Of a DNA stretch of 64,000 nt, positions 689 through 57,148 are shown piece by piece (within the stretch, counting starts at the first letter, position 1; each line of letters starts with the position of its first letter). The position numbers and the translations under genes are program-made. Source of the DNA: Acetobacter ascendens (GTDB taxonomy: Bacteria; Pseudomonadota; Alphaproteobacteria; Acetobacterales; Acetobacteraceae); the NCBI RefSeq assembly GCF_001766235.1, contig NZ_CP015164.1, positions 124,001-188,000 on the forward strand, read 5' to 3'. Below the pieces are notes generated by a model, which saw only the letters and a list, made by a program, of their open reading frames with translations, did no database searches and was not told the origin of the DNA.

Positions 689-2078
689 GGGGGAGCCGTC
701 CACATATGGTTGCCGTCCGTTATGCAAGAGTTTTCTGACCCATATTGACGTGTGATCGTGTGCGGTCTTCTGTAAGGCCTGTTGATGTGGCCTTTCAGAA
801 GCCACTGGCCAGTATGGTGATCAGCGGATCAGATCCAAATCTCACAGGCGTGCTTTAAAGCACAGAGAAATCCACTGGTTTTTCCGATCCGGATCAGACG
901 ATCATGCGCCCATTCAGGTCATCGCCCTCTCACACCCCTACCGGTTCCATCCGCGGGAGCCGAGCCATCGCTCAGGCTGCCACGGACAGGGCCGGATCCC
1001 GATAATCCTCCTGTTTTGTTGCCATGGCCCAGATGGCTCGTGCCATCCTGTTGGCCAGCGCAATGGCTACCAGCATACGGGGCTTGCGGGCCAGCATCCG
1101 TGCCAGCCAGCTTCCCGGTGCAGGGGCCTTACGGCTGGCCCAGTTCACCTGGGTCATGGCGCCCATGATGAGAAGCCTGCGGATATCAGCCTGCCCGGCT
1201 TTTGATATCTTCCCCAGCCTTTCCTTTCCGCCAGATGAGAACTGACGGGGCACCAGCCCCAGCCACGCAGCAAAGTCGCGCCCGCGCCGGAAGCTCTGCA
1301 GGTCAGGCGCAAAAGCTTCAATCGCAAGAGCGGTCAGAGGACCCACTCCAGGCATGCTCTGCAATCTGCAGGTGTTTTCACTTTCCTGGGCAAGCATCCT
1401 GATCTTCTTTGTTCTGACATCAATCCGCACACTCTGCTCCGAAATCTGTCGCAGCAGATCAAGGCATTCCTGCTTCACAGCCTCTGGCAGAACCGCCTCA
1501 TCCAGCATGGCTTCAATGTGTCTGATATGCGCAATCCCCTGTGGCACGACGAGACCGAATTCATACAGAACGGCACGCAGGGCATTCACCAGTTCCGTGC
1601 GCTGGTGCACCAGACGCTGCCGGGCCCGGAAAAGAACGCCACGCGCCTGCTGCGCTTCAGTGCGTGGTTCGACAAAGCGCATTTCCGGCTGACGGGCCGC
1701 AATGACAATCGCTTCCGCATCAGCAGCATCGTTCTTCTGGCGCTTCACGAAAGGCTTCACATACTGCGGAGCGATCAGTCTGACCTCGTGACCAGCTCCT
1801 GCCAGTTCGCGAGCCCAGTAATGCGCGCTCCCGCACGCTTCAAGAACGACCAGAGCAGGCGGCTGCGTGGCCATGAACTGCATAAACTGCTGACGACGCA
1901 GCTTTTTGCGAAACATCACCTCGCCCGCACGCGAAGCTCCATGAACCTGGAAAATGTTCTTTGCCAGATCAACGCCTATCACTGTATCCTTCATCTGCCG
2001 TCCTTTCGCGCAGTCGTTTCTTCCAACGACCATTCTGGCACATTGCGATGCCGTGCGGGGAGGACGGCAACCACCCCA
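689..2078 (-). mobile_element. IS110-family element, left copy
   Basis: It is inserted 8 bp inside the right end of the IS1380 at 2079-3735, since the outer 8 bp present in the intact IS1380 at 42954-44618 are missing here. It contains one transposase gene and about 280 bp of non-coding 3' sequence. The outer boundary is set by the end of homology with the right copy; the true IS110 terminus was not independently proven. IS110 elements normally lack inverted repeats and make little or no target duplication, so the borders cannot be confirmed from flanks. Confidence 0.75.
972..1994 (-). CDS. IS110-family transposase
   Basis: A 340-residue DEDD transposase that would move the element by a site-specific-recombinase-like route. 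The N-terminal DEDD_Tnp_IS110 domain shows GVDLAKN (first Asp), LVVLEACGSAHYW and KNDAADAEAI. The C-terminal Transposase_20 domain shows MPGVGPLTA and FAAWLGLVPRQFSSGG with the conserved serines. The ATG at 1994 was chosen because MKDTVIGVDLAKN is the usual family start; an in-frame extension to 2084 is open but reads into the element end. The protein is identical to that encoded at 55843-56865. Full length, probably functional. Confidence 0.92.
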   Translation of the reverse strand: MKDTVIGVDLAKNIFQVHGASRAGEVMFRKKLRRQQFMQFMATQPPALVVLEACGSAHYWARELAGAGHEVRLIAPQYVKPFVKRQKNDAADAEAIVIAARQPEMRFVEPRTEAQQARGVLFRARQRLVHQRTELVNALRAVLYEFGLVVPQGIAHIRHIEAMLDEAVLPEAVKQECLDLLRQISEQSVRIDVRTKKIRMLAQESENTCRLQSMPGVGPLTALAIEAFAPDLQSFRRGRDFAAWLGLVPRQFSSGGKERLGKISKAGQADIRRLLIMGAMTQVNWASRKAPAPGSWLARMLARKPRMLVAIALANRMARAIWAMATKQEDYRDPALSVAA

Positions 2079-3735
2079 TCTCACACTTGAGGCAATTTCA
2101 GGTCATTTTGTAGAATTCAGTCATCCCACAGGAGCCCGATCTGGAATATTGACGATATTCTGCTTCTGGCGGCGGGTTCTGAACGCAGTGAGGGTGTCAC
2201 GGCCTGAGAAGGCAGTGTTGGTGGAAGCTATGTGGTCTGTGCACTGTCTGTTTCTTCAGATGGCCTGCCGGAGCCTTCGCAATCGTGCATGAGCGAGGGC
2301 GAATTCATGCTGACAGGGGAACATGTCCGGCATGGACAGGACAATCCGACGGACGCTGAGCGTGACACGTGTCGCGATTTTGAGCAGTCGTGCGCGTATG
2401 GTGCCACAGGTCGCCGTCTCCAGGCTGGTCTGGCCAAGGGCCAGTCTTTGCAGAGCGGTCAGCAGGACATAGGCTGCGGCCGAGAACCACAGCCGGAGCT
2501 GGTTGGCCCGGATGGTGTGGGACGAGGTCCTGTCTGAGAACAGATCCATCTGGCATTCCTTGATGCGGTTTTCCATATCCCCGCGTGCGCAGTAAATCTG
2601 TTCGTAGAGATGGCGGGGGTCGGACATTCCCTGCGGTAGCGTGGTGACAATAAAGCGATGATAGCGGTTGCCATGGCGCCATTCGGCCTTGGCCACGACC
2701 CGCCTGCGGCGCGTCCAGCTGTCCTTTGTGATCCAGTCAAAGGAGGCAAAGCCGCGCGCCGCTTTGCCTGTCGTGGCGGCTTCGTCACGAACCTCAGCGG
2801 ACAAAGAGGCAATCCGGTCATACAGGCGGGTGTTGCCTGCAAGCCCAAACAGGAAGTCAACGTGGTTGTCTTCGCACCATGTCATCAGACTGTCCCGGGC
2901 GAAACCGCTGTCCCCACGCACCAGGATACGCACCCGGGGCCAGCGGCTCCTGATCTGCTCCACGATCCGGCGGATGTCTGCCAGTGCTTCCTTCCTCGGG
3001 TCCCTGTCTGCCGTGCGCAGGGTAGCGCTGAGGAGATGGTCCCCGCAGAAGACATACAGGGGAAGATAGCAGTTATGGCCGTAATATCCATGAAAGGCCC
3101 GGCCTTCCTGATGGCCATGGATACGGTCATCGGTGGCATCCACATCCAGAACGATCCGGGCGGGTGCGCGCTCATGCTGGTCCATGAAAAGCATCACGAA
3201 CAGGGTAGCCAGGGCCTCATGATCAGCAATGATGCGGCAGTAACGATCTGCCTGCTGCCCACTGCGCTCCAACCGGTTCAGCGTGGATTTGCCAGCCAAT
3301 GCTGCGCAGTTTGCCCGGCCTCCTGACAGACGGCCCGAGGCCAGACCAAAGATCAGGTCATGCCGCAGGGCATCGTGATCATTGAGATCTTCATAGCCCA
3401 GTGCCAGGCCCATGATCCGCTGACGGACAAGGTCTTCAACCCGGTATTCCACAAAGCCGGGATGCCGCTTATCGCGAAAACAGGCAGCAAAGCGGCGGCT
3501 GAGCCCCAGAATGTCATCAGCCTGCTTCACCAGAATGACGCCCCCATCCGAACTCATGCGACCCCCGTCAAAACGGGCCACAACACGCCGTCCACAGGAG
3601 GCTGGAAACTCATACGCGCCTGCGCTACACTCTGTCTGCATCGGGTTCGTTTATTGCTTATGAAAAATTCTTTTGTGTAAAACAGACTTTTTCATAATCT
3701 AACCCGATGTACAACCCTTCTGTGAGATTTCCGCG
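2079..3735 (-). mobile_element. IS1380, left copy (last 8 bp lost)
   Basis: Compared with the intact 1665-bp copy at 42954-44618, this copy has its left terminus (CGCGGAAATCTCAC) but lacks the outer 8 bp at the right end, where an IS110 was inserted. It sits in an IS5/IS427-type element at a TCGA target (3736-3739). The matching second TCGA was lost with the rest of the target element. The transposase gene inside is open. Confidence 0.9.
2256..3641 (-). CDS. IS1380-family transposase
   Basis: A 461-residue DDE transposase (DDE_Tnp_1 / IS1380 family) acting on the IS1380 ends. It includes DGGVILVKQADD near the N terminus, LDVDATDDRIHGHQ (first catalytic Asp region), VRGDSGFARD (second Asp) and ARGDMENRIKE (catalytic Glu region). 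The start just inside the left terminus is shared by all three copies. It differs from the copies at 43048 and 54196 in a patch around residues 90-110 and at scattered positions, a mosaic pattern described in the findings. No disabling change is seen. Confidence 0.93.
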   Translation of the reverse strand: MQTECSAGAYEFPASCGRRVVARFDGGRMSSDGGVILVKQADDILGLSRRFAACFRDKRHPGFVEYRVEDLVRQRIMGLALGYEDLNDHDALRHDLIFGLASGRLSGGRANCAALAGKSTLNRLERSGQQADRYCRIIADHEALATLFVMLFMDQHERAPARIVLDVDATDDRIHGHQEGRAFHGYYGHNCYLPLYVFCGDHLLSATLRTADRDPRKEALADIRRIVEQIRSRWPRVRILVRGDSGFARDSLMTWCEDNHVDFLFGLAGNTRLYDRIASLSAEVRDEAATTGKAARGFASFDWITKDSWTRRRRVVAKAEWRHGNRYHRFIVTTLPQGMSDPRHLYEQIYCARGDMENRIKECQMDLFSDRTSSHTIRANQLRLWFSAAAYVLLTALQRLALGQTSLETATCGTIRARLLKIATRVTLSVRRIVLSMPDMFPCQHEFALAHARLRRLRQAI

Positions 3736-4277
3736 TCGAACGGATATTTCGTTATCTGGCCGCTGATTACGACAACGAATACATGATGATCGACAGCACA
3801 ATTGTCCGAGCGCATCAGCATAGTGCCGGAGCTCTCAAAAAAGGGGCACGGATCAGGCCATCGGACGATCACGAGGCGGGCTAACTACAAAGATCCATGC
3901 CATCTGCGACGCTCTGGGCAATCCAGTGGAACTCGGCATCACACCGGGACAGGATGCCGATATCACCCAGGCAGAACCACTTCTGGAAAACATCGAACCG
4001 GATGCTTTCCTTGCTGACAAGGCGTATGACGCGGACAGGTTGATCGATCGGCTGATACAGCGCGGGATTACCCCGGTCATCCCGCCAAAACGCAACAGAA
4101 CGACACGACGGAAAACCGATTTTTCTCTCTACCGCGAACGGAACCTTGTTGAGAGGTTCTTCAATAAACTCAAGCAGTTTCGCGCTATCGCAACCCGCTA
4201 CGATAAACTGAAATCGACCTTCCTCGCAGCCGTGCAGTTCGCCTCAATCATCATCCTGCTTAACTGACGACACGCCG
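3736..4277 (+). pseudogene. IS5-family (IS427-type) fragment, transposase 3' part
   Basis: This matches the 3' two thirds of the complete element at 9507-10370. The coding sequence resumes at the IS1380 insertion point and runs through the catalytic segment (DADRLIDRLIQRG, then RNLVERFFNKLKQFR with the catalytic Glu) to the stop at 4265-4267. The 5' third of the gene, including its start, is absent. The outer inverted repeat is present (ending at 4277) and is followed by TA. Two reading frames are needed, as in the intact element, because of its internal frameshift site. Confidence 0.88.
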
Positions 4278-4278
4278 T

Positions 4279-4655
4279 AGTTTATCATTTTACTATGTTG
4301 TGTATATGTAAATTTAACTTAAGTAAAAATAAAAATAATTCAAGTAAATTATACAAGTAATATTGTTATTTATTAAAATTTATACGAATTGTGTTTGTTG
4401 TGCCGATGAAAAGTATGTTTGTGTGGAAGATGTGGGGTAGCTAAAAATTGGAAAATTGGAAATTATAACAGCAGGGTGAAAGTTTTTTTCCAATGAAGGC
4501 GAATGTGTAAGTCTTTATCTAACGCGCAATTCAATCTATTACACGCGGAATTTATAACCTATGCGAAATAAGTATGCCTGAAATGCGTTTTTGATATATA
4601 TTACCAAAACCTTTCCCCCGCCGTTATGGCAGGGGAGGGCACGCTTGGTAGGGCG
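4279..4655. other. AT-rich non-coding gap
   Basis: About 377 bp of sequence much richer in A and T than its surroundings, with many ATG- and TAA-rich stretches and no credible open frame on either strand. It lies between an IS end and the stop codon of the convergent radical SAM gene. A weak hairpin (CCCCGCC / GGCAGGGG with one bulge) near 4616-4636 could end that gene, but it has no U-tract. The composition suggests foreign DNA or the upstream region of a gene displaced by the IS. Confidence 0.6.
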
Positions 4656-5999
4656 TTAGTAGATATCGAAGTCATTATTGCCGGTGGAGGAAAAAGCCAT
4701 GCGCCGTTCTGTAAGATCCAAAATCCACGATGACATATCAGACCGGGTGCGCGGCGGAAAAGGCAGCCGCTTAAAGATGGAACGCATGGAATAGAATTTT
4801 TTATACATCCACTGAATACGTGCTTCCATTTCCTTGGGGGAGCAGTTTTTGGGCCAGATCTGGCAGATTTGGCCGGGCCAGCGGTCAATTTCTGGCGCGT
4901 TGATAATACGGCCTGCCTTTTCCATACGGTTAAACAGCGCCGTGCCCTTGGTGGGCGTAAGGATGTTGAAATACGCCGCAGGCACCTTGTGTTCTTCCAG
5001 AAAGGAGATGGTGGCGCGGTAGATATCGTGGTCTTCATCATCAAAACCGAAGATGAAGTTGAGCGAGTAGCTGATATCGCGCTGGCGCAGGTTTTCAAAC
5101 ATCTCATGGTAGCGGCTGGCCTTGTTCCAGCCTTTGCGCATGCCGTCCAGAATATCCTTATCAATACTTTCAATACCGATATTTACGTGCATCACGCCGG
5201 ATTTGCGCGCCAGATCCAGAAATTCCTTATCCAGGCACAAATTGGAAGACCACAGCGTAGACCAGCGGATACCCAGCGGCACCAGCCCTTCCATCAGTTC
5301 CATGGCGCGGCTTTTTTTGCCGCCAAAGTTGCTTTCACCAAAAAAGAAGTGGCTGCCACGATTCTTAATCAGCTTCAGCTCGTTCACCATTTCGTCCACC
5401 GGGCGCCAGCGGTAGCGGCCCCCAAGGTAGAACCGTTCGGAACAAAAATCGCACACAAACGGGCACCCGCGGGAGGATTGCACGGCAAAAGTGCGGAAGG
5501 GGCCAAACTTTTTAAGGTCTAGCAGGTCATACCTTGGGGCGGGCAGGCCGTTCAGTTCCTTTAAGGGTGTGGCGCGGTAAATGCTTTTCAGCCGGTTGGC
5601 GGCGGCATCATCCAGCATTTCCTTCCAGATGGGTTCGGCCTCACCCACGCCTACGGCATCTACGTGCTCTGCGGCTTCTTCGGCGTTAAAATACACATGG
5701 GGGCCACCCATAATCACCTTTACGCCGCGTTTACGAAATTCCTTGGCAATATCGTAAGCGCGGTAGGAATGGAGCGTCCAGACCGTAAGGGCCACAACAT
5801 CCACCAGCGCATCAAAATCTATATCTTCAAGCTGTTCATCCAGCAGCGTTACCTTCCACTCTGGTGGGGTCAGGGCGGCCAGGTACGGCAGGGCAAGCGG
5901 CACCATCTGTCGGCGCTTGGTTTTGAACAGCGTTCGGTCCGTAGGGGCTTTATAATGCGTGGGCTGAATGATCAGTAGGCGTAGGTCATTTGCTGGCAT
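4656..5999 (-). CDS. B12-binding domain radical SAM protein
   Basis: A 447-residue predicted cytosolic enzyme with an N-terminal cobalamin-binding-like domain (about residues 5-140, LLIIQPTHYK and VIMGGPHVYFN) and a radical SAM core. The cluster motif is C179-x3-C183-x2-C186. Such proteins use a 4Fe-4S cluster, SAM and often cobalamin for methylation or rearrangement at unactivated carbons. The ATG at 5999 gives the standard N terminus; the frame is open further upstream but that stretch is antisense to the acyltransferase side and lacks family sequence. Acetic acid bacteria make methylated hopanoids with class B radical SAM methylases such as HpnP and HpnR; this gene could be related, but no hopanoid gene is nearby and I do not assign it. 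Confidence 0.85.
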   Translation of the reverse strand: MPANDLRLLIIQPTHYKAPTDRTLFKTKRRQMVPLALPYLAALTPPEWKVTLLDEQLEDIDFDALVDVVALTVWTLHSYRAYDIAKEFRKRGVKVIMGGPHVYFNAEEAAEHVDAVGVGEAEPIWKEMLDDAAANRLKSIYRATPLKELNGLPAPRYDLLDLKKFGPFRTFAVQSSRGCPFVCDFCSERFYLGGRYRWRPVDEMVNELKLIKNRGSHFFFGESNFGGKKSRAMELMEGLVPLGIRWSTLWSSNLCLDKEFLDLARKSGVMHVNIGIESIDKDILDGMRKGWNKASRYHEMFENLRQRDISYSLNFIFGFDDEDHDIYRATISFLEEHKVPAAYFNILTPTKGTALFNRMEKAGRIINAPEIDRWPGQICQIWPKNCSPKEMEARIQWMYKKFYSMRSIFKRLPFPPRTRSDMSSWILDLTERRMAFSSTGNNDFDIY

Positions 6000-6428
6000 G
6001 TGGGTATCAGGATCTGCTGAATTAAAAGAAAAAACGGGCAGATGGTGCCCCTTTGTTACAGAATATACATAAGCAGGGGTGGGGGCTGTCCACCTCCGCT
6101 CAAGCATGGCGGATGTGTGCCCACCGTAACCAAACGCGGCCAGTAAGCTGGTCTGCGGCATGGCGGTGTGGGCGGGCATGCACCATAATAACAGGGATGC
6201 ACGCAGGGCATGGATTTGGCATATCCATGTGTGCGCTGCAATGCTGGCGCATTGGGGTTTTGGCATGGCTCCCATGCCTGCAAGTTGGGGCCGTGGTGCA
6301 CCGTTACGGCGCCAGATTGCGGGGTGGTCGTGGGGCAAAAGCTGGGCTGGGTAAAACCTGCGCGTAGGGTGGTGTTGCAGTATATATAAGAGGCATTGGC
6401 ATATGGGCTGGCGGCGTAAAGGGGCGAG
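6000..6428. other. Divergent intergenic region
   Basis: About 430 bp between the divergently transcribed radical SAM and acyltransferase genes. Open frames exist on both strands but have no recognisable protein character. It presumably holds both promoters; a TATATATAAGAGG-like stretch near 6382 is a weak -10 candidate. I see no RNA gene or clear operator. Confidence 0.5.
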
Positions 6429-8612
6429 ATGATCGGGTTTGGCTTTTTCCGGCCTGTTATGCAGGCGGCGGCGCGGGGTATGGCGTGGCGTGCGGCACCC
6501 TCCGGCGCGGTGCCTGTTGTGCTGGCCCGTATGGGCCAGCATCTTGCCCGTGTAGCGGCGTGGTTCTGGCCCGGCAGTTCTGCCCAGCTTGTGGCCCAGC
6601 CCCATGCCGGATGGCGGGCAGATATAGATGGCCTGCGCGCGCTGGCTGTGGTGGGGGTGGTGGTGTACCACGTCTTTCCCGCCGCGCTGCCCGGTGGTTT
6701 TGGCGGGGTGGATGCGTTTTTTGTTATCTCCGGCTTTTTAATCAGCGGGCATCTGGTGGTGCATTTTGCGGCGGGGCGGTTTTCTGTGGCCGCGTTTTTT
6801 GCGCGCAGGGTGCGCAGGCTGGCCCCGGCTTTGCTGGTGGTGCTGGCCGCCTCCTTGCTGGCCGGGTGGTTTACCCTGTTGCCAACCGAGCTTGCCGCCG
6901 TGGGGCTGGATGCCGCTGCGGGTGCGGCATCTGTGGCCAATCTGCTGATGTGGCACGCCCAAGGGTATTTTGACCGCGCCGCCGTGTTAAAACCCCTGCT
7001 GCATTTATGGTCCTTGGGGGTGGAGGAGCAGTTCTATCTGCTCTGGCCGCTGGTGCTGGCACTGGGCTTTGCCGCGCGGGTGCGTGCGGGCGTGCTGGTG
7101 GGGGCCACGGGGGCGGCGTGCTTTTTATATAGCTTGGCGTGCAGCGCGTGGTGGCCGGGGGCCGGGTTTTATTCTCCCCTCAGCCGAGGGTGGGAGTTCA
7201 TGCTGGGCGCGGGCCTTGCCCTGCACGGCGTGGCGGCGGGTGGGCCGGAGGGTGCAACGGGTGGTGTGGCCCCGGCGCACGGTGCACGCGCTGGCATGGG
7301 CCGCATGTTGACGCGGTGTGCTGCTTTACTGCGTGCAGGCGGTGGGCGGCATGGGGCGGCGGTGTTGGGTTTGGCCTGTGTGCTGGCCGGGTTTGTGGTG
7401 CTGCGGCCGGGTGTGGGCTTTCCGGCCCCGTTTGCGCTATTGCCTGCTGGGGGTACGGCATTGCTGATCTGGGCCGGGGCGGGAGCGTGGGTAAACCGGC
7501 ACGTTCTGGCTGTGCGGCCCATGCGCGCGGTGGGGCTTATCAGTTACCCGCTGTATCTGTGGCACTGGCCGCTGGTTTCTTGGTTTCATATTGTGCGGGG
7601 GGCTGGGGTTATTCACAACAGTGCGGGGTTTGCGCTTATGGGCGCGGCACTGGTGCTGGCGTGGCTAACCACCAAGTATGTGGAAAACCCGTTACGCGGC
7701 GGGCATTTTCGGCAAGGCAAAACGGTGGCTCTTGTGGGCGGGTTGGTGGCCCTTTGCACGGCGGGGCTGCTAACGTGGCACACTGCAGGCTGGCCCGCGC
7801 GATTTGCACACACACCTGCGGGCACGGATTTATCGGCCATCAATCTGGCGGTGCGAGATGGCATTTTTGCCCCCACACCGCATATGCACATGACGCACGA
7901 AAACGGGTTAACAGTAGCCACCATAGGCCATGCGGGCCGCCCCATAATGTTTACGGGGGATAGCCTGTTGTTTCAGTGGGGGCCACGGGTAGAGGCGCTA
8001 TTGCAGCAGGGGCGGTTAAAGCACACGGTTATTTTTGTGGCAGGCCCCAGTTGTAGCCCCTTTTTGGGTGAGGTTTATGAAAAATCCTTTGCATATTGCC
8101 GGAATATGCAAAACGTGCAGCAGCGTATCATCCAGCAGCAGAATGTTCAGGCCGTGGTGGTGGGGGCGTTCTGGCCGCGTGTGCTGTTGCACACACCGGG
8201 CACACAGGCACAAAAACAGGCGGGTTTTGTGCAGGATATGCGCGGCCTTTCGGGCAACGGGGCGCGGCCTGTGTGGCTGGTGCTGCCCACCCCGGCAGAT
8301 GCACGCTTTAGCCCAGATAAACTGGTGACCCGCAGCCTTACGCATATAGGCGTGAACACAGCCTTGCTGGCGCAGGGTGTTCCCACCCAGCAGCTCCGTA
8401 CTGATACGGCGGCGGATACGGCTTTTATGCGCGCACTTGCCGCGCAAGCCGGGGCAAAGGCGCTGGATGCGTGGCCCGATATCTGCGGCACTGGCCCGGC
8501 CTGTGCGGTTATAACCCCACCAGCCACCCCCAAATATGCAGATGACAAGCATTTAAGGCCCGGCTTTGTGCAACAGCACGCCACGTTTTTAGATGAGGTG
8601 TTGGCCCATTAA
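6429..8612 (+). CDS. OafA/YrhL-type acyltransferase with SGNH domain
   Basis: A 727-residue membrane protein that probably O-acetylates a cell-surface polysaccharide or lipid. Residues about 60-400 are an acyltransferase-3 domain starting GWRADIDGLRALAVV, with the conserved His in VVVYHVFP and many hydrophobic helices. The C-terminal part is a periplasmic SGNH hydrolase-like domain with the nucleophile motif TGDSLLFQW and a late DDKHLRPG carrying the Asp/His pair. This two-domain plan is that of OafA-like and peptidoglycan O-acetyltransferases. An ATG at 6531 is an alternative start nearer the conserved region. The stop overlaps the stop of the convergent downstream gene. Confidence 0.88.
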   Translation: MIGFGFFRPVMQAAARGMAWRAAPSGAVPVVLARMGQHLARVAAWFWPGSSAQLVAQPHAGWRADIDGLRALAVVGVVVYHVFPAALPGGFGGVDAFFVISGFLISGHLVVHFAAGRFSVAAFFARRVRRLAPALLVVLAASLLAGWFTLLPTELAAVGLDAAAGAASVANLLMWHAQGYFDRAAVLKPLLHLWSLGVEEQFYLLWPLVLALGFAARVRAGVLVGATGAACFLYSLACSAWWPGAGFYSPLSRGWEFMLGAGLALHGVAAGGPEGATGGVAPAHGARAGMGRMLTRCAALLRAGGGRHGAAVLGLACVLAGFVVLRPGVGFPAPFALLPAGGTALLIWAGAGAWVNRHVLAVRPMRAVGLISYPLYLWHWPLVSWFHIVRGAGVIHNSAGFALMGAALVLAWLTTKYVENPLRGGHFRQGKTVALVGGLVALCTAGLLTWHTAGWPARFAHTPAGTDLSAINLAVRDGIFAPTPHMHMTHENGLTVATIGHAGRPIMFTGDSLLFQWGPRVEALLQQGRLKHTVIFVAGPSCSPFLGEVYEKSFAYCRNMQNVQQRIIQQQNVQAVVVGAFWPRVLLHTPGTQAQKQAGFVQDMRGLSGNGARPVWLVLPTPADARFSPDKLVTRSLTHIGVNTALLAQGVPTQQLRTDTAADTAFMRALAAQAGAKALDAWPDICGTGPACAVITPPATPKYADDKHLRPGFVQQHATFLDEVLAH

Positions 8613-9214
8613 GGCGTGTTCCAGCCCAGCCAGAAATCCGGGGCATTGTCCCACTTGGCCAATACGGGGGAAAGGTGCCTGCGGGCCTGAAAACAGCCCA
8701 TGGCAAAACCCGCTGTGCCATCGCACGAATCGCTCCGATGGTGTAGCGCGCCCTGCATCCAGAACAATGCGCCGCGTTTGCGCTCGCCACTTAAACCGGC
8801 AATCCAGCGGTTCCAGATATGGCGGGCGTTCTGCCCTTCATGATACGCGGCCATATCCTGCGCGGGGGTGTTGGGCATGGCCATGGCGGGGGGCATAACG
8901 TGGTATGGCTGCGCGCCCGGTGCTGGGGGTGCGGTGTTAAGCGCATAGGCCACCCCCGGCGGCATATGGCCGGGTGGAGGTTCCAGCGGCACAGGGCCAG
9001 CCAGCAGCAGCATGGTAAAACCCGCCGCCGCAATACCCACAAGGCTTACCAGCCCAAAACGTATGGCGCGGGTTGCATCCGAGGTGTGGGAAATAGGCTC
9101 AACCGAGACAGCATGCAGGGCTTTTTCTGCTTTTTTCTGGCATCGGGCGCTGCAATACGGCGCGTGGGTGTTGGTGTGGTAGATACGGTCACACCATGCA
9201 CAAGCTCTGTCCAT
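8609..9214 (-). CDS. Zinc-ribbon membrane protein, unknown function
   Basis: A 201-residue protein with an N-terminal zinc-ribbon-like motif (CAWC, then YCSARC), one predicted membrane helix (about residues 55-75, LVSLVGIAAAGFTMLLLAG), a Pro-rich linker and a conserved-looking C-terminal domain rich in Trp, His and Cys (HIWNRWIAGL, GALFWMQGAL, FAMGCFQARRH). I do not recognise the family. The ATG at 9214 has GGGGAGG just upstream; a GTG at 9253 is an alternative. It is convergent with the acyltransferase gene. Confidence 0.7.
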   Translation of the reverse strand: MDRACAWCDRIYHTNTHAPYCSARCQKKAEKALHAVSVEPISHTSDATRAIRFGLVSLVGIAAAGFTMLLLAGPVPLEPPPGHMPPGVAYALNTAPPAPGAQPYHVMPPAMAMPNTPAQDMAAYHEGQNARHIWNRWIAGLSGERKRGALFWMQGALHHRSDSCDGTAGFAMGCFQARRHLSPVLAKWDNAPDFWLGWNTP

Positions 9215-9506
9215 GACCTCCCCATCACCCAATCTGCCAAGTATTTCTGTCACGCGCGGCGCACTATATCAGTGTTCGATATATTTGCCAGTCCTGATTG
9301 TGAACTGTTCTTAAGTGTATGGTCACATACCAGTTTGCTTTGTTTTGACATGGCGCGTGGTCATTTCTAATTCCAGATCATCATCCCAAAAATTGTAAAC
9401 ACCAAGGACATTCCAATGCCTACAGCGTTGCGCAAGGCAGAACTGGCCTGTGGTACGGTGTTGCGTGGCGGTGGCCGCTGGTGGGTTGTGGCGCAGGCCC
9501 AGCCTA

Positions 9507-10370
9507 CGGCGTGTCGTCAGTTAAGCAGGATGATGATTGAGGCGAACTGCACGGCTGCGAGGAAGGTCGATTTCAGTTTATCGTAGCGGGTTGCGATAGC
9601 GCGAAACTGCTTGAGTTTATTGAAGAACCTCTCAACAAGGTTCCGTTCGCGGTAGAGAGAAAAATCGGTTTTCCGTCGTGTCGTTCTGTTGCGTTTTGGC
9701 GGGATGACCGGGGTAATCCCGCGCTGTATCAGCCGATCGATCAACCTGTCCGCGTCATACGCCTTGTCAGCAAGGAAAGCATCCGGTTCGATGTTTTCCA
9801 GAAGTGGTTCTGCCTGGGTGATATCGGCATCCTGTCCCGGTGTGATGCCGAGTTCCACTGGATTGCCCAGAGCGTCGCAGATGGCATGGATCTTTGTAGT
9901 TAGCCCGCCTCGTGATCGTCCGATGGCCTGATCCGTGCCCCTTTTTTGAGAGCTCCGGCACTATGCTGATGCGCTCGGACAATTGTGCTGTCGATCATCA
10001 TGTATTCGTTGTCGTAATCAGCGGCCAGATAACGAAATATCCGTTCGATGACGCCGCTTTCACACCAGCGGCGCAGACGCCGGTGCACGTTTTTCCAGTC
10101 ACCGAAACGGGCAGGAAGGTCGCGCCATGGAATACCCGCGCGATAGCGATACAACACCGCCTCCACGAACAGACGGTTGTTCACCGCAGTGCCGCCGACA
10201 TAGCCTTCTCGACCAGGAAGAAGATCCTTTATCCGCTCCCACTGGTCATCGCGTAAACTATAGCGCCGCATCTGTCTGTCTCCCCAAAAAAACGGGAAAA
10301 CAGTCAGCACACGCAGACACAAAGTACAACCCTCACGTGCCACTCTCAGGGCTTAACTGACGACACGCCG
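9507..10370 (-). mobile_element. IS5-family (IS427-type) element, complete
   Basis: An 864-bp element with perfect terminal inverted repeats of at least 19 bp (GGCGTGTCGTCAGTTAAGC), flanked by a TA duplication (9505-9506 and 10371-10372). The two-frame transposase and the TA target fit the IS427 group of IS5. It interrupts the first gene of the phage cluster. Fragments of the same element occur at 3736-4277 and 53560-54101, where IS1380 later inserted. Confidence 0.92.
9517..10271 (-). CDS. IS5-family transposase, two frames (programmed -1 frameshift)
   Basis: The first frame starts at ATG 10271 (MRRYSLRDDQWERIKDLLPG, the usual DUF4096-type N terminus) and holds the first catalytic Asp in MMIDSTIVRAHQH. 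It stops at 9900. After a -1 shift at the A6G run near 9946-9952, the second frame reads DQAIGRSRGGLTTKIHA, then the second Asp (FLADKAYDADRL) and the Glu (RNLVERFFNKLKQ), ending at 9517. The fused product would be about 250 residues, normal for the family. Confidence 0.88.
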
Positions 10371-10993: not shown

Positions 10994-11026
10994 TTTTTGT
11001 AGCTGTAACTTGGAAAAACCCTTTTC

Positions 11027-46705: not shown

Positions 46706-46713
46706 AGGCCGTA

Positions 46714-47865: not shown

Positions 47866-48043
47866 GACCCGCCCGTTATTCTCCACCTGTTCCGCAGGGT
47901 TTACGCATACCGGCCCCATGCCAGTGTGGTGCGTATTGTGTCATGGCTGCTGCTGTGGTGCCAGAGAGAAGTTTGCAAGAAGTTTGCCACACCGCAGGGC
48001 CATGCCGGGGCACGGGCCATACGGTGTGGGGCTGGTGTGGGTG

Positions 48044-50143: not shown

Positions 50144-50323
50144 ATGGAGTCTCCGCTTTCTTTCTTCTGGAGCAGATGTGCGGGGCAGGCCCACCCACCT
50201 GAGTGTTCGGAAACAAAAGAATATTCCGCCCCACCTTACCTCTGGCATGGAAGGCTGCCTACCCCGTGTGGTGCGGGCAAGTATGGGTTGGCCGTAAGGG
50301 AATGAATTTTTCTGCCAGCCCGC

Positions 50324-52840
50324 ATGTGTGCTTGCATCTTGCAGGCATCCCCCGCATTAGGGGCTGAAACACACATATATGTTATGCGTTGCACGTTATG
50401 CGGCGGCCCGCAGGTGCACAAAAGCAAGGGGTATGGCGTTATTTCTGGCCGGGTAAAATACAGGCAGCGTGTTGCCTTAGGGCGGGGGCCACAACAGTGC
50501 AGGCGTGTTGCGGCGCATCAGGCGCGCCGTGTTTTGCGCTGCGCCGGGCTTATGGCGCTGGGCCTGTGGCCTATTATGGTGCAGGCCGCCCAACCCGAGG
50601 CTACAGAGCCAGCGCATACACCCCCCCATACACATGGGCGGCATTATACAGGTGCGCATATAGGGCACCATGCAGGCCCCCCCGCGGCGGTGGAAGCCCG
50701 CAGCAGCACATCTGTGCAGGTGAACGCCCACCGGTATGATTACATGTTTCAACCCGCCCAGCATGAGCCAGATGCCACCACGCATCTTACGGCGGAACTG
50801 CTGCGCAACCGCGATATCACTACTCTGCGCGGGCTGGAGCACGTAGCCCCTAACTTAACGATGCAGAGCATCAACGGCACGGCCTCCACCAACTTTTACC
50901 TGCGTGGGTCCGGGTTTAATGATTTCACCCAGAACAACATGCCCACCGTGCTGACGTATGTGGATGATGTTGCCTACCCCTATGCCGCCATGACAGACGG
51001 CATGATGTTTGATCTGGCCAGCGCCAGCGTTACCCCCGGCCCGGTGGGTACGGAGCACGGCCAGTCCACCACGGGTGGGGAAGTGCATTTGCACACGGCA
51101 GACCCAACGGATACGTGGCATTTTGGGGCATCGCAGGATATTGCCTCCTACGCTCGTAGCCGGAGCGAGGCCTATGTGTCTGGCCCGCTGGCTAAGGGGC
51201 TGGATTTTCGGCTGGCGGGGCAAACACGCCAAGGCGGCGGTTGGCAGCGAGACCCCGAAAATGGAGATCACTTAGGGGATGCCGATTTGTGGGCCCTGCG
51301 CGGCAAGCTGCGCTGGCGGCCGGATGATAAAACCACCATCCAGCTTGGTGGCCATTTTGTACAGGATAACAGTCAGGTGGTTACCCCGCAGGCTGTGCAC
51401 CGCATTATTGGCTCCACCCCGCTGCCCGATTACGGCATGGGAACAGATGCGCAGTGGTCTTCCAATTCCACATTCGACAAGCTGATCGGCCGGCGTGATG
51501 GACTAAAACCCAGCGAGCACAACCAGTACTGGGGCGCGGATGTGCATATCATCCACGATTTTGGGCCGGTGACGTTTACATCCGTGAGCGCGTTTGAAAC
51601 TGAACGGCGCGGGGAATACACGGATCAGGACGGCACATCCCGGCAGGAGGCCGATACCTACCGCACCATAGATGGCAACGTGTTTACGCAGGAAGCGCGG
51701 CTGAACGGCTCTGCCCTTGGCGGGCGGCTGAACTGGGTTGTGGGCGGCTATTACCAGCGCAGCCAGATGAACCAGCGCTTCTTCTTTAACTACACAGATT
51801 ACGCCGCGCGTGGCTACATGATGTCCACCTCATTCGGGCAGAACCAGCAGAGCGTTTCGGAATTCGGGCATGTCAGTTACCGGCTGCCGCATAACGTCAC
51901 CATCTGGGCGGGGCTTTTGCACGAACTGGATGACCGCAGCATTACGGGCCTGACATCGCAGATATTTGGCGGAGCCACGCATAACTTCCACGCAGAAAGC
52001 ACGGCCTCCAACCAGTTTGCGGGGCAGGTGGGTGTTTCCTGGCAGTTCGTGCCCAATGCCATGCTGTATTACAAAATGAGCAAGGGCTTTAAGCCCGGCG
52101 GTTTTACGACCAACAACACGCAGGTGCAGGCACAGCTAGACCCCTTTCACCCCGAAACGGTGCTGACATACGAGCTGGGCTTTAAATCAGACCCCATACC
52201 CAACCGTCTGCGTATTAACGGCGCGGCGTTTTATAATGATTACCATAACCAGCAGGTTGTGGGCACGGTGCTGATTCCCGATTACGGCCCGTTAAGCGAG
52301 ATTACAAATGCCCCCAAATCTGAAAGCTGGGGTTTTGAGGCCACGTTGGAGGCCAACCCCATAAGCCGTTTGCACATTATGCAAAATATTGGTTGGCAGC
52401 GTGGGGATTTTCAGAACTTCCCCAATGTGGACCGCTCCGCCACCAACGCCAATTACGCCAAACACGGCACATGGAACGCGATAGAGCGTAACTTTGCCGG
52501 GGTGGATAACGGTTCCCCCAAACTCACGCTGAACGGTGAGGCCATGTGGCGGCAGCCCTTGGGCAAGGGGTATCGGCTGGATTTTGGGCCGGATTGGCAA
52601 TACCGGGGTAGCCAAGCCATTGTGGTGGGTGGCACGGGGTATCAGCGCCTGCCATCTTACTTTTTGCTGGGCGCACACGTTACGTTTCGCCCGCCTTCCG
52701 GCAAGTGGGAAGCTACGCTGTATGCCCGCAATATTCTGGACAAACGCTATGCCGAAAGTGGCGGTATGGCCACCACCACGTATTTCTATATTCCCGGTGA
52801 GCCACGCTTTGTTGGGGGCCGTGTTTCCTGCGGGTTTTAG
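50324..52840 (+). CDS. TonB-dependent outer-membrane receptor
   Basis: An 838-residue (or shorter) receptor. Signal-like stretch LRCAGLMALGLWPIMVQAAQ precedes a plug (ITTLRGLEHVAPNLTMQS, then NFYLRGSGFNDF) and a beta barrel with GFKPGGFTTNN and the C-terminal FYIPGEPRFVGGRVSCGF. The pattern fits siderophore or xenobiotic-type receptors of the FecA/CirA-like group; the substrate is unknown. The true start is probably downstream of 50324, near 50384 or 50531, since residues 1-60 are not signal-like. Confidence 0.88.
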   Translation: MCACILQASPALGAETHIYVMRCTLCGGPQVHKSKGYGVISGRVKYRQRVALGRGPQQCRRVAAHQARRVLRCAGLMALGLWPIMVQAAQPEATEPAHTPPHTHGRHYTGAHIGHHAGPPAAVEARSSTSVQVNAHRYDYMFQPAQHEPDATTHLTAELLRNRDITTLRGLEHVAPNLTMQSINGTASTNFYLRGSGFNDFTQNNMPTVLTYVDDVAYPYAAMTDGMMFDLASASVTPGPVGTEHGQSTTGGEVHLHTADPTDTWHFGASQDIASYARSRSEAYVSGPLAKGLDFRLAGQTRQGGGWQRDPENGDHLGDADLWALRGKLRWRPDDKTTIQLGGHFVQDNSQVVTPQAVHRIIGSTPLPDYGMGTDAQWSSNSTFDKLIGRRDGLKPSEHNQYWGADVHIIHDFGPVTFTSVSAFETERRGEYTDQDGTSRQEADTYRTIDGNVFTQEARLNGSALGGRLNWVVGGYYQRSQMNQRFFFNYTDYAARGYMMSTSFGQNQQSVSEFGHVSYRLPHNVTIWAGLLHELDDRSITGLTSQIFGGATHNFHAESTASNQFAGQVGVSWQFVPNAMLYYKMSKGFKPGGFTTNNTQVQAQLDPFHPETVLTYELGFKSDPIPNRLRINGAAFYNDYHNQQVVGTVLIPDYGPLSEITNAPKSESWGFEATLEANPISRLHIMQNIGWQRGDFQNFPNVDRSATNANYAKHGTWNAIERNFAGVDNGSPKLTLNGEAMWRQPLGKGYRLDFGPDWQYRGSQAIVVGGTGYQRLPSYFLLGAHVTFRPPSGKWEATLYARNILDKRYAESGGMATTTYFYIPGEPRFVGGRVSCGF

Positions 52841-52983
52841 GTATTAAATAAGTATAACAAACGCGTGATTCACGTTATAGATAGAAATAAATAAGAAATG
52901 GTCACTAAAAAACTATTTCTTATTTTCTGGTAACGCTGCTTGTATTGCCTCCGTTCTTGTTTTCTTTAAACGGAGGTCCGGTT

Positions 52984-53577
52984 GTGGCCGGTAAAAACGG
53001 TGCGTGCCTGATTGCTTTGGCGTTGCTTTTGGGGGCATGCAGTTCTCGCATCGCCCTTAACGAGGCCTCCTTCCCCATTCAGGATCTGCCGGGGCAGCAT
53101 TTGGTGCAAACGCCGGTGGCCTATAGTTTTGCACCGGGTTTTGCCAAGCAGAATGCGCAAATAGCATGCAGCCTTGGTGTAAATTACACCACAGACCTTG
53201 GGGCCTCTGCCGAGGAGCGGTTGCAGCAGGCCATTCATTCCAGCTTTGCGCATGCGCAGCAGGAAACGCCAGCCCCGCATGGCTATACGCTGGCACTTTC
53301 CCTGCAAACGGCGGATGAGCAGGTAAGCGTTAAGGGCGGCATGTGGGATAATAAATACACGGTGGACACTACCCTTAAAGGCACCGTGCAGGTGTTAAAC
53401 GCACAAGGCCAGCCTGTGCAGGTGGTGCCCATTACCGGGCAGGGCAGCAATACAGTGGCCGGAAGTTGCGGGGCACTTAAACGCGCCATGGTGCAGGCCA
53501 GTGAAAAAGCCGTGGCCCAGATTGGAAATGACTTTGTGGCCAAAGTGGCCAATGGCCAACGGCGTGTCGTCAGTTAA
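52984..53577 (+). pseudogene. Lipoprotein, 3' end replaced by an IS
   Basis: GTG 52984 follows GGAGG at good spacing and starts VAGKNGACLIALALLLGACSS, a lipoprotein signal with lipobox LGAC. The mature part shows PVAYSFAPGFAKQNAQIACSLG and a C-terminal region with KRAMVQASEKAVAQIGNDF. At 53560 the IS427-type fragment begins and supplies RRVVS and a stop, so the natural C terminus is lost, perhaps only by a few residues. Family not recognised. The product may still be made and anchored. Confidence 0.72.
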
Positions 53578-54101: not shown

Positions 54102-55758
54102 CGCGGAAATCTCACAGAAGGGTTGTACATCGGGTTAGATTATGAAAAAGTCTGTTTTGTACAAAATAATTTTTCATAAGCAATAAACGAACCCGATGCA
54201 GACAGAGTGTAGCGCAGGCGCGTATGAGTTTCCAGCCTCCTATGGACGGCGTGTTGTGGCCCGTTTTGACGGGGGTCGCATGAGTTCGGATGGGGGCGTC
54301 ATTCTGGTGAAGCAGGCTGATGACATTCTGGGGCTCAGCCGCCGCTTTGCTGCCTGTTTTCGCGATAAGCGGCATCCTGCCTTTGTGGAATACCGGGTTG
54401 AAGACCTTGTCCGTCAGCGGATCATGGGCCTGGCACTGGGCTATGAAGACCTTAATGACCATGACGCTTTACGTCATGATCCTGTCATGGGTCTGGTATC
54501 GGGACGTCTGTCAGGAAGCCGGGCCAACTGTGCGGCACTGGCAGGAAAATCCACACTGAACCGGCTGGAGCGCAGTGGCCACAAGGCAGACCGTTACTGC
54601 CGCATCATTGCTGATCATGAGGCACTGGCGGAGCTGTTCGTCACGCTCTACATGGACCGGCATGATCGGGCTCCTGCCCGGATCGTTCTGGATGTGGATG
54701 CCACCGATGATCGTATCCATGGCCATCAGGAAGGCCGGGCCTTTCATGGATATTACGGCCATAACTGCTATCTTCCCCTGTATGTCTTCTGCGGGGACCA
54801 TCTCCTCAGCGCTACCCTGCGCACGGCAGACAGGGACCCGGGGAAGGAAGCACTGGCAGACATCCGCCGGATCGTGGAGCAGATCAGGAGCCGCTGGCCC
54901 CGGGTGCGTATCCTGGTGCGTGGGGACAGCGGTTTCGCCCGGGACAGTCTGATGACATGGTGCGAAGACAACCACGTTGACTTCCTGTTTGGGCTTGCAG
55001 GCAACACCCGCCTGTATGACCGGATTGCCTCTTTGTCCGCTGAGGTTCGTGACGAAGCCGCCACGACAGGCAGAGCGGCGCGCGGTTTCGCCTCCTTTGA
55101 CTGGATCACAAAGGACAGCTGGACGCGCCGCAGGCGGGTCGTGGCCAAGGCCGAATGGCGCCATGGCAACCGCTATCATCGCTTTATTGTCACCACGCTA
55201 CCGCAGGGAATGTCCGACCCCCGCCATCTCTACGAACAGATTTACTGCGCACGCGGGGATATGGAAAACCGCATCAAGGAATGCCAGATGGATCTGTTCT
55301 CAGACAGGACCTCGTCCCACACCATCCGGGCCAACCAGCTCCGGCTGTGGTTCTCGGCCGCTGCCTATGTCCTGCTGACCGCTCTGCAAAGACTGGCCCT
55401 TGGCCAGACCAGCCTGGAGACGGCGACCTGTGGCACCATACGCGCACGACTGCTCAAAATCGCGACACGTGTCACGCTCAGCGTCCGTCGGATTGTCCTG
55501 TCCATGCCGGACATGTTCCCCTGTCAGCATGAATTCGCCCTCGCTCATGCACGATTGCGAAGGCTCCGGCAGGCCATCTGAAGAAACAGACAGTGCACAG
55601 ACCACATAGCTTCCACCAACACTGCCTTCTCAGGCCGTGACACCCTCACTGCGTTCAGAACCCGCCGCCAGAAGCAGAATATCGTCAATATTCCAGATCG
55701 GGCTCCTGTGGGATGACTGAACTCTACAAAATGACCTGAAATTGCCTCAAGTGTGAGA
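54102..55758 (+). mobile_element. IS1380, right copy (last 8 bp lost)
   Basis: Left terminus CGCGGAAATCTCAC follows TCGA (54098-54101). The right end stops 8 bp short of the full terminus, where the IS110 begins. Same target and same truncation as the left copy at 2079-3735. Confidence 0.9.
54196..55581 (+). CDS. IS1380 transposase, divergent patch
   Basis: A 461-residue DDE transposase with all catalytic segments (LDVDATDDRIHG, VRGDSGFARD, ARGDMENRIKE). Residues about 127-155 (GHKADRY, then AELFVTLYMDRHDRAPARI) differ from both other copies over roughly 105 bp (54576-54680), while the flanks are near identical. This looks like a conversion tract from another IS1380 relative. The frame is intact. 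Confidence 0.93.
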   Translation: MQTECSAGAYEFPASYGRRVVARFDGGRMSSDGGVILVKQADDILGLSRRFAACFRDKRHPAFVEYRVEDLVRQRIMGLALGYEDLNDHDALRHDPVMGLVSGRLSGSRANCAALAGKSTLNRLERSGHKADRYCRIIADHEALAELFVTLYMDRHDRAPARIVLDVDATDDRIHGHQEGRAFHGYYGHNCYLPLYVFCGDHLLSATLRTADRDPGKEALADIRRIVEQIRSRWPRVRILVRGDSGFARDSLMTWCEDNHVDFLFGLAGNTRLYDRIASLSAEVRDEAATTGRAARGFASFDWITKDSWTRRRRVVAKAEWRHGNRYHRFIVTTLPQGMSDPRHLYEQIYCARGDMENRIKECQMDLFSDRTSSHTIRANQLRLWFSAAAYVLLTALQRLALGQTSLETATCGTIRARLLKIATRVTLSVRRIVLSMPDMFPCQHEFALAHARLRRLRQAI

Positions 55759-57148
55759 TGGGGTGGTTGCCGTCCTCCCCGCACGGCATCGCAATGTGCC
55801 AGAATGGTCGTTGGAAGAAACGACTGCGCGAAAGGACGGCAGATGAAGGATACAGTGATAGGCGTTGATCTGGCAAAGAACATTTTCCAGGTTCATGGAG
55901 CTTCGCGTGCGGGCGAGGTGATGTTTCGCAAAAAGCTGCGTCGTCAGCAGTTTATGCAGTTCATGGCCACGCAGCCGCCTGCTCTGGTCGTTCTTGAAGC
56001 GTGCGGGAGCGCGCATTACTGGGCTCGCGAACTGGCAGGAGCTGGTCACGAGGTCAGACTGATCGCTCCGCAGTATGTGAAGCCTTTCGTGAAGCGCCAG
56101 AAGAACGATGCTGCTGATGCGGAAGCGATCGTCATTGCGGCCCGTCAGCCGGAAATGCGCTTTGTCGAACCACGCACTGAAGCGCAGCAGGCGCGTGGCG
56201 TTCTTTTCCGGGCCCGGCAGCGTCTGGTGCACCAGCGCACGGAACTGGTGAATGCCCTGCGTGCCGTTCTGTATGAATTCGGTCTCGTCGTGCCACAGGG
56301 GATTGCGCATATCAGACACATTGAAGCCATGCTGGATGAGGCGGTTCTGCCAGAGGCTGTGAAGCAGGAATGCCTTGATCTGCTGCGACAGATTTCGGAG
56401 CAGAGTGTGCGGATTGATGTCAGAACAAAGAAGATCAGGATGCTTGCCCAGGAAAGTGAAAACACCTGCAGATTGCAGAGCATGCCTGGAGTGGGTCCTC
56501 TGACCGCTCTTGCGATTGAAGCTTTTGCGCCTGACCTGCAGAGCTTCCGGCGCGGGCGCGACTTTGCTGCGTGGCTGGGGCTGGTGCCCCGTCAGTTCTC
56601 ATCTGGCGGAAAGGAAAGGCTGGGGAAGATATCAAAAGCCGGGCAGGCTGATATCCGCAGGCTTCTCATCATGGGCGCCATGACCCAGGTGAACTGGGCC
56701 AGCCGTAAGGCCCCTGCACCGGGAAGCTGGCTGGCACGGATGCTGGCCCGCAAGCCCCGTATGCTGGTAGCCATTGCGCTGGCCAACAGGATGGCACGAG
56801 CCATCTGGGCCATGGCAACAAAACAGGAGGATTATCGGGATCCGGCCCTGTCCGTGGCAGCCTGAGCGATGGCTCGGCTCCCGCGGATGGAACCGGTAGG
56901 GGTGTGAGAGGGCGATGACCTGAATGGGCGCATGATCGTCTGATCCGGATCGGAAAAACCAGTGGATTTCTCTGTGCTTTAAAGCACGCCTGTGAGATTT
57001 GGATCTGATCCGCTGATCACCATACTGGCCAGTGGCTTCTGAAAGGCCACATCAACAGGCCTTACAGAAGACCGCACACGATCACACGTCAATATGGGTC
57101 AGAAAACTCTTGCATAACGGACGGCAACCATATGTGGACGGCTCCCCC
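55759..57148 (+). mobile_element. IS110-family element, right copy
   Basis: Equal to 689-2078 in reverse. Begins TGGGGTGGTTGCC inside the end of IS1380. After the gene, about 280 bp are non-coding and end at CTCCCCC, immediately followed by the terminus of an IS3 element. The true right terminus may have been removed by that neighbour. Confidence 0.75.
55843..56865 (+). CDS. IS110-family transposase
   Basis: A 340-residue DEDD transposase, identical in protein sequence to that at 972-1994; one silent base difference was seen. GVDLAKN, KNDAADAEAI and FAAWLGLVPRQFSSGG are present. Intact. Confidence 0.92.
   Translation: MKDTVIGVDLAKNIFQVHGASRAGEVMFRKKLRRQQFMQFMATQPPALVVLEACGSAHYWARELAGAGHEVRLIAPQYVKPFVKRQKNDAADAEAIVIAARQPEMRFVEPRTEAQQARGVLFRARQRLVHQRTELVNALRAVLYEFGLVVPQGIAHIRHIEAMLDEAVLPEAVKQECLDLLRQISEQSVRIDVRTKKIRMLAQESENTCRLQSMPGVGPLTALAIEAFAPDLQSFRRGRDFAAWLGLVPRQFSSGGKERLGKISKAGQADIRRLLIMGAMTQVNWASRKAPAPGSWLARMLARKPRMLVAIALANRMARAIWAMATKQEDYRDPALSVAA

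What the first reader, a model, noticed from the sequence alone, without database searches (positions are those of the whole stretch)
689..57148. 3.6-kb inverted repeats frame an invertible 49-kb segment
Positions 689-4278 and 53559-57148 are inverted copies of equal length (3590 bp) with the same three nested IS junctions. They enclose 4279-53558, which holds the phage cluster, a candidate replication origin, vitamin-uptake genes and TonB genes. Homologous recombination between the copies would invert the whole segment and could join the disrupted genes at either border differently. Matching junctions show that one copy arose from the other, not from separate insertions.
Basis: partly seen in the sequence, partly recalled or inferred. 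Interest (0 to 1): 0.75.

Follow-up and report, generated by a model that had tools for sequence, protein, structure and literature searches.

The report
Jumping-gene nests behind chromosome flips
The two mirror-image repeats are real, but they are copies of a common nest of jumping genes in an acetic-acid bacterium; two close relatives show the DNA between them in the same orientation, and the left copy instead marks one end of a much larger chromosome inversion.

Summary
In detail: 689-4277 and 53560-57148 are inverted copies, 3,589 bp with 59 mismatches. Each holds an IS110-family element of IS1111 type (ISB) set in the left end of IS1380, which sits in an IS5-family element. The interpretation mostly fails. 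This ISB-IS1380 nest occurs at least ten times in the genome. In two of two close relatives that hold the segment, the 49-kb interior runs in the same orientation as in the window relative to the right flank, so no 49-kb flip is seen. The left copy is one scar of a 1.85-Mb inversion; its partner nest lies at 1.97 Mb. IS5 ends followed by TA sit at both scars and fit one uninterrupted site in both relatives. The breakpoints are 518 and 470 kb from the origin. Another pair of nests flanks a second, less symmetric inversion around the origin. The right copy borders a 4.2-kb deletion ending in an IS3 element. The IS1380 parts of the two arms differ at 58 sites and each has closer kin elsewhere, against simple duplication. 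A 49-kb flip remains possible but unevidenced; assembly error is not excluded.

The parts
1..699 (+). 3' part of ISA, a second IS110-family element of IS1111 type that abuts ISB; the full copy is G000:C1:123303-124699 and starts outside the window. Subterminal repeat GGGAGCCGTCC at 691-701; the ISA end runs to about 703
702..2079 (-). ISB, IS110-family element of IS1111 type (left arm); transposase 972-2003; subterminal inverted repeats GGTTGCCGTCC 708-718 and GGACGGCAACC 2062-2072; non-coding region of about 270 bp downstream of the transposase. The arm as reported starts at 689, inside the end of ISA
865..935 (-). Two guide-like stretches in the ISB non-coding region: GGATTTCTC (865-873) and GTGTGAGA (928-935), matching the two sides of the target in the IS1380 left end
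   Evidence: a guide function is inference
2080..3735 (-). IS1380 (left arm), transposase 2256-3641; its left end CGCGGATTTCTCACAC is split by ISA-ISB, the tip lying beyond ISA outside the window
3736..4277 (+). 3' part of an IS5-family element next to IS1380, beginning with TCGA; followed by TA (4278-4279)
4278..53559 (.). Enclosed 49-kb segment, same orientation in G022 and G029 relative to the right flank
9507..10370 (-). Intact IS5-family element (864 bp) with TA on both sides, inside the segment
42950..44610 (+). Solo IS1380 inside the segment
53560..54101 (-). 3' part of the IS5-family element (right arm); preceded by AA, unlike 27 of 27 intact copies, which have TA
54102..55757 (+). IS1380 (right arm), transposase 54196-55581
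55758..57135 (+). ISB (right arm), transposase frame 55753-56865 in the ORF list; 57136-57148 is what remains of the end of ISA
57149..58345 (+). IS3-family element joining the ISA remnant to a cut-short phosphate permease gene, at a place where both relatives have about 4.2 kb more
58289..58990 (-). PHO4-family phosphate permease gene, cut short by the IS3 element; the frame is 546 aa in G029 and G022

Best explanation
The arms are two of at least ten dispersed copies of a nested insertion-sequence block: IS1380 whose left end was entered by IS110-family elements of IS1111 type (ISA and ISB in most copies), here also sitting in an IS5-family element. These long, near-identical blocks serve as homology for ordinary RecA-type recombination. 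The left copy is one scar of an inversion of about 1.85 Mb (G000 coordinates), roughly symmetric about the origin, whose other scar is the inverted nest at G000:C1:1969660-1974101. The right copy is a separate block, probably trimmed on one side by an IS3-associated deletion of about 4.2 kb. The 49-kb interior has kept the orientation of the relatives. Shown: the anatomy, the copy numbers as lower bounds, the collinearity, and IS5 ends with TA at both scars fitting one site of the relatives. Inferred: RecA-type recombination as the mechanism, the direction of change, and the order of events.
For: Window 4278-53558 and 58345-64527 match G029 517824-552809 and 557034-564897, and G022 649528-700672 and 704909-712900, all on the + strand. 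The left outer flank, G000 112002-123270, matches G029 2282530-2273940 reversed, a distant place. What precedes the segment in G029 (512626-517810) lies reversed at G000 1974496-1979672, next to the nest at 1969660-1974101, and G029 2244968-2258503 lies forward at G000 1930000-1944852: the pattern of one inversion. The two nests are on opposite strands. IS5 ends followed by TA lie at both scars (window 4277|TAGTTTATC; G000 about 1974484|TAAGCCTC) and fit the uninterrupted relative sites GAAGCTTAGTTTATC (G029) and GAGGCTTAGTTTATC (G022). 27 of 27 intact IS5 copies have TA on both sides. By sampled GC skew the origin of G029 is near coordinate 0, so the breakpoints are about 518 and 470 kb from it. 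A second pair of nests on opposite strands flanks another inversion around the origin. The left IS1380 differs at 23 sites from that of its proposed partner and at 58 from the right copy.
Against: It is not a single clean event. The IS5 halves at the two scars are cut at different TCGA sites (10045 and 9991 in the intact copy). The 4-bp sequences beside the left nest differ, TTGA and TCGA. 5.9 kb of G029 beside the far breakpoint gave no match in this genome, a search without a positive control, and G000 1945-1969 kb had no match in the relatives' stretches that I took. The left IS1380 is equally close (22, 23) to two copies that are not the partner. The second inversion is not symmetric: about 201-207 and 70 kb from the origin. 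A mis-join of the assembly at the nests would give the same reciprocal pattern, and I had no reads.
Confidence: 0.8

Rival explanations
1. One reading: the 49-kb segment is an invertible unit that flips by recombination between the two arms.
For: Inverted arms of 3.59 kb, 98% alike, with identical runs up to 1,018 bp, enough for homologous recombination by general knowledge.
Against: Two of two relatives that hold the segment have the same orientation relative to the right flank; the left outer flank is explained by a different, larger inversion; eight other ISB-IS1380 copies are available as partners. An even number of past flips cannot be excluded.
Confidence: 0.08
2. The inversion scars are assembly errors: the assembler crossed between inverted nests, so neither the 1.85-Mb nor the origin-proximal inversion is real.
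For: Mis-joins between inverted repeats give the same reciprocal junctions; reads could not be inspected.
Against: The chromosome is one contig of 2.86 Mb in an assembly rated 100% complete. The breakpoints of the larger inversion are roughly symmetric about the origin and GC skew has the expected sign at all four flanks, as is usual for real inversions, though this is weak evidence. Flanks also carry losses and unmatched DNA.
Confidence: 0.12
3. One arm is a copy of the other made by moving or duplicating the whole IS5-IS1380-ISB block.
For: Same IS5-IS1380 junction; no difference in the 542-bp IS5 part and one in 1,390 bp of ISB.
Against: 58 differences in 1,656 bp of IS1380, and each copy has closer kin elsewhere. 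ISB and IS5 copies are nearly identical across the genome, so their identity says little. The same IS5 site carries IS1380 in the opposite orientation at 2,655,158. Later gene conversion inside IS1380 could however hide a common origin.
Confidence: 0.2

Closest known systems
IS1380 of Acetobacter pasteurianus (75 IS1380-type transposases in IFO 3283 according to PMC3751514, passages seen)
   Same: IS1380 transposase (NF033539); 4-bp target duplications, TCGA in 19 of the 23 solo copies whose two sides agree; at least 43 copies here
   Different: Ten copies have IS110-family elements in the left end; the listings show no paper on this
IS4321/IS5075, elements of IS1111 type that enter the terminal repeats of Tn21-family transposons (title of Partridge and Hall 2003, seen in the reference list of PMC11187229)
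   Same: IS110-family transposase, 11-bp subterminal inverted repeats, insertion at a fixed place in the terminal repeat of another mobile element
   Different: The target is the left end of IS1380; two different elements, ISA and ISB, sit side by side in eight of the ten nests
Inversions about the replication origin between inverted IS copies in bacteria (recalled; PMC12863080, on genome rearrangements in bacteria, seen only as a listing and start of abstract)
   Same: Breakpoints at inverted repeats on opposite sides of the origin
   Different: The repeat is a nest of about 4.4 kb made of three elements; only one of the two inversions is roughly symmetric

Membership tests
Invertible (flip-flop) DNA segment | Inverted repeats at both ends | tested here: met
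Invertible (flip-flop) DNA segment | Both orientations found among cells or strains | tested here: not met
   Same orientation in 2 of 2 relatives that hold the segment; reads and other strains of the species were not available
Invertible (flip-flop) DNA segment | A dedicated site-specific recombinase for the repeats | not tested
   No search for an invertase was made; only chosen ORFs were scanned
IS1380 family | IS1380-type DDE transposase | tested here: met
   NF033539, 418.5 bits against a cut-off of 180
IS1380 family | Terminal inverted repeats and a 4-bp target duplication | tested here: met
   Ends CGCGGATTTCTCACAC and CGCGGAAATCTCACAG. Of 43 copies 33 have an intact left end; the 4-bp sides agree in 23 of these 33 and differ in 10, four of which carry a second right end about 300 bp further on
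IS110 family, IS1111 group (ISA, ISB) | IS110-family DEDD transposase | tested here: met
   PF01548 and PF02371 for ISB; NF033542 over its cut-off for ISB and ISA
IS110 family, IS1111 group (ISA, ISB) | Subterminal inverted repeats, usually 11-13 bp | tested here: met
   GGTTGCCGTCC/GGACGGCAACC (ISB) and GGACGGCTCCC/GGGAGCCGTCC (ISA); definition from passages of PMC11187229
IS110 family, IS1111 group (ISA, ISB) | RNA-guided choice of target | tested here: inconclusive
   The ISB non-coding region holds a 9-nt and an 8-nt target match; both together in 0.06% of 5,000 Markov sequences and 0 of 1,639 decoy targets, with thresholds set after seeing the match. The ISA non-coding region shows only an 8-nt match on one side. 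No RNA or activity shown
IS5 family | IS5-type transposase and a fixed short target duplication | tested here: met
   PF13340, NF033580 over its cut-off; TA/TA at 27 of 27 intact copies

The most novel reading that the evidence does not exclude
RNA-guided IS1111-type elements home on the left end of the abundant IS1380 and so turn a 1.66-kb repeat into one of up to 4.4 kb; these enlarged repeats are then preferred partners for inversions about the replication origin, so that the target choice of one small element shapes the large-scale order of the host chromosome.
Probability: 0.22. Interest if true: 0.55.

Novelty: new member of a known kind. Interest (0 to 1): 0.35.

Why it matters
It replaces a tempting 'invertible island' story by a traceable history: one arm is the scar of a large inversion, the other borders a deletion. 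In this IS-rich acetic-acid bacterium nests of elements, not only single copies, lie at the four breakpoints of two inversions around the origin. ISB uses the IS1380 left end as a target in Acetobacter plasmids, in Komagataeibacter medellinensis and in an uncultured Gluconobacter.

Tried and rejected
An early guess that 50324-52840 and 52945-53577 were leuS-lptE was wrong: Pfam gives a TonB-dependent receptor and no family, so the search for holA told nothing about the border.

Matching 4-bp sides do not identify unrearranged copies: the nest at 1969660-1974101 has TCGA on both sides and yet joins DNA from two distant places.

I considered the ISB-IS1380 unit (query 1-3051) as one moving element. 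Against it: the right flanks of the ten copies differ except in the two window copies; the left flank is ISA in eight of ten; ISA and ISB occur together outside IS1380 at two places, with a truncated third, and ISA once without ISB; and ISB without ISA sits in IS1380 in K. medellinensis and an uncultured Gluconobacter. Not fully excluded.

Strand parity of the left-flank Rieske gene and the phosphate permease gene: in G029, G022 and the best hit of G014 they are on opposite strands, in this genome on the same strand; G018 has two Rieske copies, one on each strand, and the remaining genomes have no such pair on one contig.

Candidate caps: one search scored 40 of 123 candidates, 40 of 55, 40 of 86, 40 of 64; counts from them are lower bounds.

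Full report
What is there. The inverted pair is real: 689-4278 and 53559-57148, 98% complementary, 59 mismatches, of which 58 lie in the IS1380 part, one in ISB and none in the IS5 piece. From outside inwards each arm holds (a) ISB, an IS110-family element with transposase 972-2003; (b) IS1380, transposase 2256-3641; (c) the 3' part, 542 bp, of an IS5-family element of which an intact 864-bp copy lies at 9507-10370. Beside the left arm a second IS110-family element, ISA, abuts ISB and runs out of the window; beside the right arm an IS3-family element, 57149-58345, takes its place.

How the nest is built. Solo IS1380 copies start CGCGGATTTCTCACACTTGAGG after a 4-bp target sequence, mostly TCGA. 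In the nests this start is split: CGCGGATTTCT, then ISA and ISB, then CTCACACTTGAGG; the tip is visible in six of the eight nests with a full ISA, while two (1,255,740 and 1,799,867) have other DNA at the ISA edge. ISB alone is found at the same place of IS1380 in Komagataeibacter medellinensis pGXY020 (L080) and an uncultured Gluconobacter (L173). I printed the edges of nine ISB loci, five of the 40 plasmid hits listed and four of the 79 loci, chosen by eye: two have the IS1380 end on both sides, four lie elsewhere with both edges visible (after CGGATTTCT twice, CGGATCTCT, and CATCTTCT in A. pomorum, the last in what looks like an IS1380 transposase gene), and three show one edge only. The non-coding region of ISB holds GGATTTCTC and GTGTGAGA, short matches to the two sides of the target; both together arise in 0.06% of 5,000 Markov sequences and in 0 of 1,639 decoy targets, with thresholds set after the match was seen. 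ISA has no such pair in its non-coding region, only GTGAGAAA. That this is the guide of an RNA-guided element is inference from published IS110/IS1111 work (PMC11187229, passages; PMC11208160, start of abstract).

How common it is. In this genome (2,999,217 bases, 4 contigs; window = C1:124001-188000) nine loci match query 1-3051 of the arm, to within a few bases, and a tenth is truncated. 43 IS1380 bodies were collected, ten of them next to ISB. ISA has 12 full copies, ISB 11, the IS5-family element 27 intact ones. Searches scored 40 of 123 and 40 of 55 candidates, so these are lower bounds. The arms are no special pair.

Is the 49-kb segment inverted? Of 31 genomes of the genus examined, this one included, three hold the gene next to the left inner border and five the gene next to the right inner border; besides this genome only G022 and G029 hold both. 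In both, window 4278-53558 runs + and so does the right outer flank 58345-64527 (part of the phage genes has no match in G029, and 541901-544999 of G029 was not taken). So the segment shows no net inversion against the right flank. An even number of flips cannot be excluded.

What the left border is. The left outer flank (G000 112002-123270) matches G029 2282530-2273940 and G022 2391920-2383326, reversed and far away. What precedes the segment in G029 (512626-517810) is at G000 1974496-1979672, reversed, beside the nest at 1969660-1974101. Before that nest, G000 1930000-1944852 matches G029 2244968-2258503 forward. This is the pattern of an inversion with the two nests, which lie on opposite strands, at its ends. 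The IS5 end at window 4277 is followed by TAGTTTATC, the IS5 end at G000 about 1974484 by TAAGCCTC; the site reads GAGGCTTAGTTTATC in G022 and GAAGCTTAGTTTATC in G029, without insert. TA flanks 27 of 27 intact copies. So, most simply, one IS5 insertion between two neighbouring genes has been pulled apart. In G029 the origin lies near coordinate 0 by sampled GC skew; the breakpoints are about 518 and 470 kb away on opposite sides. In this genome the skew has the expected sign at all four flanks (+0.032, +0.056, -0.076, -0.033); two samples at 1740 and 1880 kb are near zero.

A second inversion of the same kind. G000 2382639-2392666 matches G029 2674073-2682000 forward while G000 2656605-2669000 matches G029 2674077-2661687 reversed; and G000 2362009-2369239 matches G029 213866-206635 reversed while G000 2638000-2649987 matches G029 190416-201186 forward (G029 201187-206634 has no match there). 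The nests at 2376.9-2381.4 and 2650.7-2655.1 kb lie between, on opposite strands, and carry complementary pieces of the IS5-family element. These breakpoints are about 201-207 and 70 kb from the origin, so not symmetric.

What the right border is. Both relatives have about 4.2 kb between 53558 and 58345 (G029 552810-557033; G022 700673-704908) that is absent here; a search of this genome with the G029 stretch gave matches of at most 77% identity over parts of it, none over the polyphosphate kinase gene (40 of 64 candidates scored). The stretch encodes in G029 a 597-aa protein, a polyphosphate kinase 2 and about 60% of a PitA-like permease (the PitA model is below its cut-off). The IS5 end at 53560 is preceded by AA instead of TA, and the IS3 element has different bases on its two sides, so neither looks like a clean insertion. 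I infer an IS3-associated deletion.

Did one arm arise from the other? The IS1380 parts differ at 58 of 1,656 sites; mean differences are 33.9 for solo-solo, 45.3 for nest-solo and 49.4 for nest-nest pairs, with a range up to 105. The left one is nearest to the copies at 1,227,519 (22), 1,969,660 (23) and 2,221,527 (23, a solo), the right one to that at 1,795,436 (17). The shared IS5 site (TCGA at 10045 of the intact copy, one of six TCGA in that element) carries IS1380 the other way round at 2,655,158, and the other half of IS5 flanks the nest at 2,376,944-2,381,405 on both sides. Separate insertion at a favoured site, with gene conversion, fits at least as well as duplication. Not settled.

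What does not fit. The two halves of the pulled-apart IS5 copy are cut at different TCGA sites; the left nest has TTGA on one side and TCGA on the other; 5.9 kb of G029 beside the far breakpoint gave no match here. More than one recombination must have passed through these nests. An assembly mis-join cannot be excluded without reads.

Known or new. IS1380 abundance and genome instability in A. pasteurianus are in print, and inversions between its strains are mentioned in general terms (PMC3751514 passages; PMC4686929 passages). Searches for IS1380 with A. pasteurianus (5 papers), A. pasteurianus with insertion sequence and inversion, IS1380 with IS110 and Acetobacter and Acetobacter with symmetric inversion listed no paper whose title or abstract start describes these nests; I read passages of two of these papers only. 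IS1111-type elements in terminal repeats of transposons are known (title of Partridge and Hall 2003). I file this as a new member of a known kind.

Noticed in passing
G000:C1 2376944-2381405 and 2650716-2655158 (loci L025, L027, L293-L296): A second pair of inverted nests flanks an inversion around the replication origin relative to G029.
   Followed up: yes
window 865-935 (- strand); L080, L173: ISB enters the left end of IS1380 at the same place in other acetic-acid bacteria, and its non-coding region holds short matches to both sides of that target.
   Followed up: partly
window 59600-59660: Relative to G029 and G022 about 1.65 kb of dehydrogenase E1-type genes is missing here, the break lying in a 7-bp direct repeat CTGCACG.
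   Followed up: partly
window 53559-58345: About 4.2 kb present in both relatives is absent, with a polyphosphate kinase 2 gene and about 60% of a PitA-like permease gene in G029.
   Followed up: partly
G000:C1:123255-123310 (L021, just left of the window): A TonB C-terminal gene fragment abuts the nest, with a 24-bp tandem duplication spanning the IS1380 tip and the first bases of ISA.
   Followed up: no
L024, L027, L107, L108: Between ISA and ISB the last 19 to about 150 bases of ISA are repeated in several copies, as if the joint had been remade more than once.
   Followed up: no
G000:C1:1220235-1223571 and 2219847-2223183: Two head-to-tail tandem pairs of IS1380 with a single TCGA between the copies.
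   Followed up: no
G000:C1 about 26381, 436319, 998614, 2846891: Four IS1380 copies carry a second right end about 300 bp beyond the first.
   Followed up: no
G000:C1:2853523 and C2:43027: A chromosomal and a plasmid IS1380 copy have the same flanks on both sides.
   Followed up: no
window 11027-28779: Phage genes (terminase, portal, major head, tail sheath, baseplate, tail fibre) inside the segment, largely collinear in G022 and partly without match in G029.
   Followed up: partly
   Followed up: partly
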